Source of the DNA: an uncultured Pelagibacteraceae bacterium
GTDB lineage: Bacteria; Pseudomonadota; Alphaproteobacteria; Pelagibacterales; Pelagibacteraceae
Direction of reading: 5' to 3'
Length of the DNA: 47,799 bases
NCBI GenBank assembly: GCA_902604055.1
Contig: CACKXA010000001.1
Coordinates: forward strand, 74,789 to 122,587
The notes beneath the pieces were generated by a model, which saw only the letters and a list, made by a program, of their open reading frames with translations, was not told where the DNA came from and did not search any database. The position numbers and the translations under genes were made by a program. This document shows positions 27,342 through 46,310 of this stretch, piece by piece (positions within the stretch are counted from its first letter, which is position 1; each line of letters opens with the position of its first letter).

Positions 27342-27778
27342 GAATTTTAGTTATCTTAAGTTTTTTTTTTTTTGAAAGTATTAGTTTTTCTAATGACGAA
27401 TACTTCTTAACTTTACGTTATAATGAGGTGAATTTGAGACAAGGTCCTTCAAAAGAATATCCTATAAAAATTTTATATAAAAAAAAATTTTTACCTGTCT
27501 TAGTTCAAGATCAATCTTACAATTTTAGAAAAATTAAAGATCATGAAAATAATACAGGATGGATTCATATTTCTCAACTTTCAAAAAAAAAAGCAGCAAT
27601 CAATATTGAGAAAGAATTAATAATGTTCAAGAGATCGACCGTTTATTCAAATCCAGTAGCAATTTTGAAAAAGGGTAGACTTATAAAAATTAAAAGATGT
27701 AAAATCAATTGGTGTAAAGGGGTTTCAGGAAAATTTGAAGGTTGGCTTAAAAAGGATGGTCTTTGGGGTCGTCTTTAA
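27335..27778 (+). CDS. Secreted bacterial SH3-domain protein
   Basis: A 147-residue protein with a short signal peptide (MLRILVILSFFFFESISFS) encoded partly by a 13-T homopolymer. It is followed by two SH3-like segments: VNLRQGPSKEYPI...GWIHISQL and TVYSNPVAILKKGRLIKIKRCKINWCKGVSG...GWLKKDGLWG. This matches the SH3-like proteins of Alphaproteobacteria (COG3807 type). Such domains usually bind peptidoglycan or other envelope targets; the exact role is unknown. Its 3' end overlaps the converging DUF2061 gene by four bases. Confidence 0.75.
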   Translation: MLRILVILSFFFFESISFSNDEYFLTLRYNEVNLRQGPSKEYPIKILYKKKFLPVLVQDQSYNFRKIKDHENNTGWIHISQLSKKKAAINIEKELIMFKRSTVYSNPVAILKKGRLIKIKRCKINWCKGVSGKFEGWLKKDGLWGRL

Positions 27779-28017
27779 TTTTTCATCTTTGATGCCCAAA
27801 ATTTATCTAACAAAAAATACCATACAGCATTAGCTAAAGGCTCAACTATGGCATCCGTTAATGCTATCATAAATGGCACATCTGCGATTGACATCAAGAC
27901 GATTATAGCAATTGCGAAGTGACCAATAGTATAAACTATTGTTCTTAAAATTGACCCTTTATTATTTGAGTATACATTCTTAGCAGCAGTAAAAATTCCT
28001 TGAGTAAATTCTACCAT
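27775..28017 (-). CDS. Small DUF2061-like membrane protein
   Basis: An 80-residue protein with two hydrophobic helices (about residues 26-42 and 48-66). The pattern LRTIVYTIGHFAIAIIVL followed by ALTDAIVEPLANAVWYFLLDKFW resembles DUF2061 proteins, in which a paired helix unit ends with a conserved Y/F-x-x-x-x-x-W. No biochemical function is known. It starts 7 bp after the katG stop and is almost certainly on the katG transcript. Confidence 0.6.
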   Translation of the reverse strand: MVEFTQGIFTAAKNVYSNNKGSILRTIVYTIGHFAIAIIVLMSIADVPFMIALTDAIVEPLANAVWYFLLDKFWASKMKN

Positions 28018-28024
28018 AAATATA

Positions 28025-30202
<2,178 letters not shown>

Positions 30203-30214
30203 TTAGTTTAGTAT

Positions 30215-30239
30215 CTAGTTTATAATAATTCTAAACTAG
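30215..30239. promoter_or_regulatory. Irr-box-like palindromic operator upstream of katG
   Basis: Left arm CTAGTTTATAA (30215-30225) and right arm TTCTAAACTAG (30229-30239) are inverted repeats with 10 of 11 positions matching around a TAA centre. The core differs by one base from the rhizobial iron control element bound by Irr (TTTAGAA-N3-TTCTAAA). It covers the spacer and -10 of the katG promoter and lies immediately downstream of the irr gene. Repression of katG by Irr, relieved by peroxide or haem status, is the natural inference. Confidence 0.65.
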
Positions 30240-30247
30240 AAAGTCAA
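30219..30247 (-). promoter_or_regulatory. Sigma-70-type promoter of katG
   Basis: On the minus strand TTGACT (30247-30242), exactly 17 bp, then TATAAA (30224-30219). The expected start is near 30212, giving a leader of about 16 nt. This is one of the best promoter matches in the window, which suggests strong expression when not repressed. Confidence 0.65.
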
Positions 30248-30257
30248 CAATAGATAA

Positions 30258-30680
30258 TTATTTTTGAATTCTAATTACAACTTCGAGATTTTTTATTTTT
30301 TTACCTTTTGGTGGAATTGGCACTTTGCTTAATTTTATTTGATTATAATTTATATCAGTAAGTTCCTTTGACCCTTCATCATAGAAATGATGGTGCGACT
30401 TAATGTTCGTATCGTAGTAGCTTTTATTTTTGCTGGTTAAAATTTCTTTTAAATAGCCGGCGTTAGTAAATGCCTCAACTGTATTATATATTGTTGCTAA
30501 GGAAATTTTTTCATTTCCACTTTTATTTATTTTTCTATTTAGAGTTTCAACTGTGAAATGGAAAGTTTTATTATTGTCAAATAAATTTTTAGCTATTAAA
30601 ATTCTTTGTTTAGTGGGCCTAAGGCCTGAACCTCTTAATTTATTTATAATTTCGTTTTTTTGGTTCATAAATTTGGTCAT
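30258..30680 (-). CDS. irr: Iron/haem response regulator Irr (Fur superfamily)
   Basis: A 140-residue Fur-superfamily repressor. LRPTKQRILIAKNLF and SLATIYNTVEAFTNAGYLKEI form the winged helix. YYDTNIKSHHHFYDE contains the His triplet typical of Irr (haem/metal site), and the C terminus LEVVIRIQK matches the Irr ending. No cysteine is present, so the N-terminal Cys-Pro haem motif of Bradyrhizobium Irr is absent, as in many other Irr proteins. Divergence from fabA-fabB-fabI is the same order as in rhizobia and supports Irr over PerR or Fur. ATG at 30680 is used; Met5 (30668) is an alternative. katG lies 61 bp downstream. Confidence 0.85.
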   Translation of the reverse strand: MTKFMNQKNEIINKLRGSGLRPTKQRILIAKNLFDNNKTFHFTVETLNRKINKSGNEKISLATIYNTVEAFTNAGYLKEILTSKNKSYYDTNIKSHHHFYDEGSKELTDINYNQIKLSKVPIPPKGKKIKNLEVVIRIQK

Positions 30681-30750: not shown

Positions 30751-31254
30751 ATGCAAAAAAATAGCTTTAATTATGAAGAGTTAATCGCTTGCGGCAAAGG
30801 AGATTTATTTGGAGAGGGGAATGCAAAACTACCTTTACCGCCAATGTTAATGTTTGACAGGATAACAGAAATAAAAAAAGATATTGGTGAATTTAAAAAA
30901 GGTTTTATTAAAGCTGAACTAGATATCAAAGATAATTTATGGTTTTTTGATTGCCATTTTCAAAATGATCCTGTAATGCCTGGATGTTTGGGCTTAGATG
31001 CAATGTGGCAGTTAGTTGGATTTTATTTAGGATGGACAGGAGAACCTGGTAAAGGAAGAGCTTTAGGAGTAAACTCAGTAAAATTTACAGGAGAAGTGCT
31101 TAAAAATACCAAGATAGCTACTTATGAAATAAATATGAAACGAATTTTAAAAAAAGAAGGTGCAGTAGTTGGCTTAGCTGATGGTATACTAAATGCAGAT
31201 GGTAAAACTATTTACAAAGCGGAAAATTTAAAAGTAGGACTGTTTAAATCATGA
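30751..31254 (+). CDS. fabA: 3-hydroxydecanoyl-ACP dehydratase/isomerase FabA
   Basis: A 167-residue hot-dog-fold enzyme that dehydrates 3-hydroxyacyl-ACP and isomerises trans-2- to cis-3-decenoyl-ACP, the branch point for unsaturated fatty acids. The active-site His lies in [14 protein letters not shown] and the Asp in [16 protein letters not shown], both as in E. coli FabA (172 residues). It opens the fabA-fabB-fabI operon, and its TGA overlaps the fabB ATG by four bases. Confidence 0.97.
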
Positions 31255-45890: not shown

Positions 45891-46310
45891 TTATTTTTTT
45901 ATTTTTGAACCGTATAATTCGAGTTTATGATCTACTAATTTGTAACCTAATTTATTAGCGATCTTTTCTTGCAAGACTTCTATTTCTTTATCCACGAACT
46001 CAACTATTTCACCACTATTAATGTCAATCAAGTGATTGTGGTCATCATTAATTTCATATCTAGCTTTACCAGTTTTAAAATCATGTTTAATTAATATTCC
46101 AGCTTCTTCAAAAAGTTTTACAGTCCTGTAAACAGTGGCAATACTTATTTTATCATCAATCTTTGTTACACGTTTATGAAGTTCGTCAACATCAGGATGA
46201 TCTTTTGATCCATACTCTTCTTTGGACTCAGAAAGAATTTTTGCAATTATCTTTCTCTGGTCTGTTAATCTTACGCCCTTTTCTTTACATTTTTGTTCAA
46301 TAGTACTCAT
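45891..46310 (-). CDS. fur: Fur/Mur-family metal-responsive repressor
   Basis: A 139-residue Fur protein. GVRLTDQRKIIAKIL and SIATVYRTVKLFEEAGILIKH form the DNA-binding domain, and DDHNHLIDINSGEIVEF is the metal-site region. The Cys-x2-Cys structural zinc pairs of E. coli Fur are absent, as is usual for alphaproteobacterial Fur/Mur; rhizobial Mur responds to manganese. It heads the run fur-miaB-phoH-ybeY-lnt-metK. Iron or manganese specificity cannot be read from sequence. It is clearly distinct from the Irr protein at 30258. Confidence 0.9.
   Translation of the reverse strand: MSTIEQKCKEKGVRLTDQRKIIAKILSESKEEYGSKDHPDVDELHKRVTKIDDKISIATVYRTVKLFEEAGILIKHDFKTGKARYEINDDHNHLIDINSGEIVEFVDKEIEVLQEKIANKLGYKLVDHKLELYGSKIKK

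What the first reader, a model, noticed from the sequence alone, without database searches (positions are those of the whole stretch)
30215..30239. Irr-box-like 25-bp palindrome sitting on the katG promoter, next to irr
Seen: two 11-base arms match at 10 positions around a 3-base centre, overlapping the spacer and -10 of a TTGACT-17-TATAAA promoter. Known: rhizobial Irr binds the iron control element TTTAGAA-N3-TTCTAAA, differing here at one base, and Irr is lost under peroxide in Bradyrhizobium. Inference: katG in this lineage is directly repressed by Irr, coupling peroxide defence to haem/iron supply instead of OxyR or PerR, in a genome with few regulators.
Basis: partly seen in the sequence, partly recalled or inferred. 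Interest (0 to 1): 0.72.

Follow-up and report, generated by a model that had tools for sequence, protein, structure and literature searches.

The report
Irr operator on the SAR11 katG promoter
In the ocean bacterium SAR11 the switch in front of the peroxide-destroying enzyme KatG is a conserved docking site for the iron/haem regulator Irr, whose gene lies next door, and the same link appears across the wider alphaproteobacteria, so these bacteria probably run peroxide defence from an iron/haem sensor instead of the usual peroxide sensor.

Summary
The palindrome is real: one base off the ICE consensus, overlapping spacer and -10 of a TTGACT-17-TATAAA promoter between irr and katG. A single such site is not rare in this AT-rich genome; conservation is the evidence. 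Of 79 unique irr-katG gaps, 72 carry the box at one mismatch (0.2% of shuffles). Of 118 genus genomes with both genes, 117 have them adjacent. In relatives without katG, rubrerythrin fills the slot, with the same box. Four genomes pair katG with OxyR and lack both irr and box. Class-wide, 23 of 105 katG genomes have a box upstream (0.2 loci expected), all in irr-bearing genomes; box and neighbouring OxyR nearly exclude each other. Best explanation: Irr represses katG by covering its promoter; binding, sign and signal are untested. Peroxide lability cannot be borrowed from Bradyrhizobium, because this Irr has no cysteine. Irr and ICE are known; direct Irr control of katG, the katG/rubrerythrin swap and a near one-target Irr regulon were not found in the papers I could read.

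The parts
30215..30239 (-). 25-bp palindrome; ICE core at 30219-30235 (TTTAGAATTATTATAAA on the katG strand), proposed Irr operator
30219..30224 (-). -10 hexamer TATAAA of the katG promoter, embedded in the right half-site
   Evidence: conserved in relatives
30242..30247 (-). -35 hexamer TTGACT of the katG promoter (17-bp spacer)
   Evidence: spacer of 15-17 bp in 61 of 79 unique gaps
28025..30196 (-). katG, catalase-peroxidase, 723 aa
   Evidence: TIGR00198 1016 bits, cut-off 770
30258..30680 (-). irr, Fur-family regulator, 140 aa, no cysteine, HHH motif at 96-98
   Evidence: NF045678 IrrA 146.3 bits, best hit, cut-off 150; alignment
30751..31254 (+). fabA, divergent neighbour of irr, conserved in relatives (context)

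Best explanation
The palindrome is an Irr operator on the katG promoter. Haem-free Irr, made from the gene just upstream, binds TTTAGAATTATTATAAA across the spacer and -10 and blocks RNA polymerase. When haem and iron suffice, and perhaps when peroxide oxidises Irr, Irr lets go and KatG, a haem enzyme, is made. Shown here: the promoter/palindrome overlap, its conservation with irr, its absence from katG genes in irr-less genomes of the class sample, and near exclusion by a neighbouring OxyR. Inferred: binding, repression, and the signal. In SAR11 Irr appears reduced to a local switch for one peroxide-scavenger slot behind it (katG or rubrerythrin), often with its own promoter added.
For: Anchored alignment of 46 upstream regions: the 14 specified core positions are 98-100% identical while most flanking positions vary. 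Unique irr-katG gaps: 72 of 79 with a box at 1 mismatch, 76 at 2 or fewer (shuffles 0.2% and 1.3%); irr-rubrerythrin gaps: 37 of 42 at 2 or fewer (0.5%). The box occurs with three KatG types, 90+%, 70% and 54% identical to the window's, and before katG genes that are not next to irr (G130; G147). 117 of 118 genus genomes with both genes have them adjacent, same strand, 50-116 bp apart; the other is split between contigs. Class-wide: 23 of 105 katG genomes have a box within 250 bp, in at least 17 families, against 0.21 loci expected; 23 irr+/box+, 65 irr+/box-, 0 irr-/box+, 17 irr-/box- (Fisher p = 0.02). Box versus adjacent divergent OxyR-like gene: 26 box only, 28 OxyR only, 1 both (p = 0.002). 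The class-wide sites fit the Irr half-site better than PerR, Fur or Mur patterns. Irr repression from promoter-overlapping boxes is established (PMC3413700).
Against: No binding or expression data for SAR11. In R. sphaeroides the Irr effect on the katE catalase is indirect (no box, no binding; PMC3413700). In Ca. Pelagibacter ubique the irr transcript follows stationary phase more than iron limitation and Irr protein did not change significantly (PMC2864753). 65 of 88 irr-bearing katG genomes show no box within 250 bp. Irr can also activate. Related genomes are not independent, and the Fisher tests are not corrected for phylogeny.
Confidence: 0.8

Rival explanations
1. Same operator and repressor, but the signal is peroxide itself: Irr here works like PerR, its Fe/Mn site catalysing oxidation of its own histidines so that it leaves katG.
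For: The five PerR ligands H37, D85, H91, H93, D104 align with Irr H41, D90, H96, H98, D109, all invariant in 16 alphaproteobacterial Irr proteins. The partner gene is a peroxide scavenger, katG or rubrerythrin, in nearly every locus read. PMC4700492 likens Irr His-cluster oxidation to PerR. A divergent OxyR-like gene replaces irr beside katG in 4 genomes.
Against: The same residues occur in Irr proteins known to sense haem; haem-free B. japonicum Irr was not oxidised by H2O2 (PMC4700492). The Zn-site cysteines of PerR are absent.
Confidence: 0.35
2. The site is read by the other Fur-family protein (window 45891-46310), not by Irr.
For: Fur of Magnetospirillum gryphiswaldense occupies the katG promoter by ChIP (PMC3251581). 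The genome encodes a Fur-like protein.
Against: Class-wide katG sites match TTAGAATNATTCTAA exactly in 9 loci, while the Fur pattern never comes closer than 3 mismatches. Boxes are absent from irr-less genomes of the class sample; in the genus, irr-less G005 and G061 still give a Fur-level match but carry only degenerate boxes.
Confidence: 0.06
3. Irr binds but activates katG, or only tunes irr-katG read-through.
For: Irr can act as an activator depending on box position (PMC7762939). irr and katG are co-oriented with a short gap.
Against: The box covers the -10 of katG's own promoter, a repressor position.
Confidence: 0.1
4. The palindrome is chance or promoter conservation only, with no regulator.
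For: ICE-like sites are common in AT-rich DNA: 32 versus 30.8 expected at up to 3 mismatches; the right half-site is the -10 itself.
Against: The left half-site TTTAGAA lies in the promoter spacer, normally free to vary, yet is 98-100% conserved. The box recurs before katG in GC-rich genomes, 23 genomes against 0.2 loci expected.
Confidence: 0.03

Closest known systems
Irr / ICE (iron control element) regulation in Rhizobiales, e.g. Bradyrhizobium japonicum bfr and blr7895
   Same: Same regulator family, same TTTAGAA-N3-TTCTAAA box, promoter-overlapping position typical of repression (as described in PMC3413700)
   Different: Target is katG; the regulon seems to be one or two promoters at the irr locus, not an iron/haem network; this Irr lacks the Cys haem motif needed for B. 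japonicum degradation
Rhodobacter sphaeroides Irr with mbfA and ccpA (PMC3413700)
   Same: Small Irr regulon aimed at oxidative-stress enzymes, including a haem peroxidase (ccpA), with direct binding shown
   Different: There the catalase katE has no box and is not bound; here katG carries a conserved box
PerR control of katG and other scavengers (Gram-positives; from general knowledge)
   Same: Fur-family repressor, 7-1-7 operator, scavenger target, same five metal ligands in the regulator
   Different: Operator half-site is Irr-type TTAGAAT on the left; the regulator scores as Irr and lacks the Zn-site cysteines; the signal is unknown
OxyR-katG divergent pairs
   Same: Dedicated regulator gene beside katG
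   Different: A LysR-type regulator gene replaces irr and its box in 4 of 169 genus genomes; OxyR and box nearly exclude each other class-wide

Membership tests
Irr (Fur superfamily) | Best profile match to Irr models | tested here: met
   NF045678 IrrA 146.3 bits, NF045677 Irr 133.1, next PerRB 64.6; just under the curated cut-off of 150
Irr (Fur superfamily) | HxH haem/metal motif | tested here: met
   H96 and H98 invariant in 16 Irr proteins
Irr (Fur superfamily) | Cys heme regulatory motif (B. japonicum type only) | tested here: not met
   No cysteine in the 140 aa; not needed for the R. leguminosarum type (PMC7762939)
Irr (Fur superfamily) | Haem-responsive DNA binding | not testable with these tools
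   Needs purified protein
ICE / Irr box | TTTAGAA-N3-TTCTAAA palindrome at a promoter | tested here: met
   1 mismatch, overlapping spacer and -10; conserved
ICE / Irr box | Bound by Irr | not testable with these tools
   Only co-distribution with irr tested
PerR | Five-ligand Fe/Mn site H37 D85 H91 H93 D104 | tested here: met
   Equivalent residues invariant
PerR | Structural Zn CxxC sites | tested here: not met
   No cysteines in the protein
PerR | Best profile match to PerR models | tested here: not met
   PerR models score 35-65 bits against 146 for IrrA

The most novel reading that the evidence does not exclude
In SAR11, Irr has stopped being a global iron regulator and become a dedicated local switch for one peroxide-scavenger slot (katG or rubrerythrin, exchanged in place behind irr under the same operator), doing the job OxyR or PerR does elsewhere. 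More widely, Irr is a direct controller of katG in many alphaproteobacteria, mutually exclusive with OxyR-katG pairs.
Probability: 0.55. Interest if true: 0.72.

Novelty: new variant of a known kind. Interest (0 to 1): 0.62.

Why it matters
SAR11 is among the most abundant groups of cells in the ocean, and many offshore SAR11 genera carry katG (PMC12636525), which bears on who removes peroxide for whom at the sea surface. If katG is held by Irr, peroxide removal in iron-poor water would be tied to haem and iron status, which is testable in culture and in metatranscriptomes. It also extends the Irr target list from iron genes to the main catalase-peroxidase in about a fifth of the katG-bearing alphaproteobacteria sampled.

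Tried and rejected
Genome-wide ICE search in the window's own genome: three sites at 1 mismatch or fewer, the other two inside or at the end of genes, so motif counting alone proves nothing. A wider Irr regulon: the extended motif in 18 genomes and the exact core in 169 genomes show only the irr locus above control; 17 off-locus hits among those listed, and those read lie in or at the end of coding genes such as an alanine-dehydrogenase-like 3' end. A Fur 6-1-6 box in the gaps: only a few rubrerythrin gaps have one. Failed by coordinate, strand or filter error and repeated. The first KatG tree missed the 70% and OxyR-linked types and was redone. Rodionov et al. 2006, the key prior regulon prediction, is not held, so an earlier prediction of katG in the Irr regulon cannot be excluded. 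In the class scan some katG start codons were misassigned, so 23 is a lower bound; a 450-bp window gave 27.

Full report
What is there. Window 30215-30239 holds CTAGTTTATAA-TAA-TTCTAAACTAG. It sits in the 61-bp gap between irr (30258-30680, minus) and katG (28025-30196, minus). Read on the katG strand the gap contains TTGACT, a 17-bp spacer and TATAAA; the ICE-like core TTTAGAATTATTATAAA covers most of the spacer and the -10. The one deviation from the ICE consensus (TTATAAA for TTCTAAA) is the -10 hexamer itself. KatG and Irr are identified by profile: TIGR00198 at 1016 bits, and NF045678 IrrA at 146 bits, just under its cut-off of 150 but far ahead of any PerR or Fur model.

Is it more than chance. 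Not by counting. ICE-like sites at up to 3 mismatches are as common in the window as in shuffles, and within the genome the pattern at up to 2 mismatches is no commoner than its reversed control. The evidence has to be conservation.

Conservation in the genus. The window lies in a streamlined genome whose nearest named relatives are SAR11 single-cell genomes labelled Pelagibacteraceae. In 169 genomes of the genus, katG was found in 133, irr in 125, both in 118; in 117 of the 118 they are adjacent on one strand with a gap of 50-116 bp, the exception being split between contigs. In an anchored alignment of 46 distinct upstream regions the 14 specified core positions are 98-100% identical while most other positions are not, including the left half-site that lies in the promoter spacer and has no promoter reason to be fixed (the anchoring favours the motif, and only one region, from a contaminated genome, lacked an anchor). 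Without anchoring: of 79 unique irr-katG gaps, 72 have a box at 1 mismatch and 76 at 2 or fewer, against 0.2% and 1.3% of shuffles.

The slot. In relatives with irr but no katG, the gene behind irr is a rubrerythrin-like protein (PF02915; NF045767 best hit, below its cut-off) with the same box; irr followed by rubrerythrin is also the order in other alphaproteobacteria. 37 of 42 unique irr-rubrerythrin gaps have a box. Most rubrerythrin promoters have one box abutting the -35 and a second, sometimes weaker, over the -10; most katG promoters keep only the second. KatG came in at least three types, 90+%, 70% and 54% identical to the window's, nearly all with the box when irr is the neighbour. 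So different peroxide scavengers have occupied one Irr-controlled slot. Many relatives also have a box before irr itself (73 of 112 unique fabA-irr gaps), but the window's own close relatives do not.

Natural experiments. Four genus genomes have katG beside a divergent OxyR-like gene; they lack irr, the three read in full lack the box, and they are the only genomes in which that OxyR was found. In G005, G061 and G151 irr is missing between fabA and katG and the box carries 2 mismatches to the ICE (TTTGGAATAATTATAAA, TTTAGAATTATCGTAAA, TTTAGAATCGTCATAAA), consistent with decay. Conversely, in G130 and in G147, a 4.3-Mb genome outside the order with a GC-rich katG region, katG is not beside irr yet carries a box or two.

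Class-wide test. From 337 alphaproteobacterial genomes drawn evenly, 120 have katG; upstream DNA was read at 110 loci in 105 genomes. A box at 2 mismatches or fewer lies within 250 bp in 23, against 0.21 loci expected from shuffles, mostly in GC-rich DNA and in at least 17 families. In the same loci the hit rate is 27 in 28 kb upstream of katG against 7 in 195 kb elsewhere, and several of those 7 are also near irr or katG. All 23 are in genomes with irr; none of the 17 irr-less genomes has a box (p = 0.02). A box and an adjacent divergent OxyR-like gene coincide once, with 26 box only and 28 OxyR only (p = 0.002). The sites fit the Irr pattern exactly in 9 loci; PerR, Fur and Mur patterns never fit exactly. 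These tests do not correct for shared ancestry.

Mechanism. Irr bound across spacer and -10 should block initiation; promoter-overlapping placement goes with repression in characterised Irr targets (PMC3413700). Irr elsewhere binds DNA when haem is scarce (PMC7762939), so the expected logic is: no haem, no KatG. Whether peroxide also lifts repression is open. In B. japonicum oxidation and degradation need haem and are driven largely from a Cys motif (PMC4700492); the window's Irr has no cysteine. It does keep the five residues equivalent to the PerR iron site (H41, D90, H96, H98, D109), so a PerR-like response is possible but not shown.

What is not there. No second promoter in the genus carries the motif above control levels except irr's own.

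Relation to the literature. Irr and ICE are known. R. sphaeroides Irr directly binds mbfA and ccpA, both oxidative-stress genes, but not katE (PMC3413700). Fur occupies the katG promoter in Magnetospirillum (PMC3251581). SAR11 katG is known from offshore genera without mention of its regulation (PMC12636525). I found no report of direct Irr control of katG, but the main regulon prediction paper could not be read.

Noticed in passing
L081, L082, L083, L251 (G024, G086, G003, G225): Four genus genomes replace irr by a divergent OxyR-like LysR gene next to katG; no other genus genome gave a match to that OxyR.
   Followed up: yes
L084, L089, L237 (G005, G061, G151): irr is missing between fabA and katG, and the Irr box carries 2 mismatches.
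   Followed up: partly
L109 1503-1519 (G092): A near-perfect Irr box remains between DUF2061 and fabA where irr would be expected; irr-katG lies on another contig of the same genome, as if relocated.
   Followed up: no
L097 900-1014; L252-L254: A Fur-box-like palindrome (such as TTGATAATAATTATCAA) lies beside the Irr box in a few irr-rubrerythrin gaps, suggesting possible dual input.
   Followed up: partly
L280 (G541), L295, L312, L320, L333, L339, L346, L351: irr directly upstream of katG also occurs in alphaproteobacteria outside the window's family.
   Followed up: partly
window 27775-28017: A small DUF2061 membrane protein lies just downstream of katG; its homologue stays near fabA in the distant relative G092 (L109).
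   Followed up: no
L104 1519-1941, L103 1632-2051: irr followed by a short rubrerythrin (about 140 aa, shorter than the 194-position model) in alphaproteobacteria well outside SAR11.
   Followed up: partly
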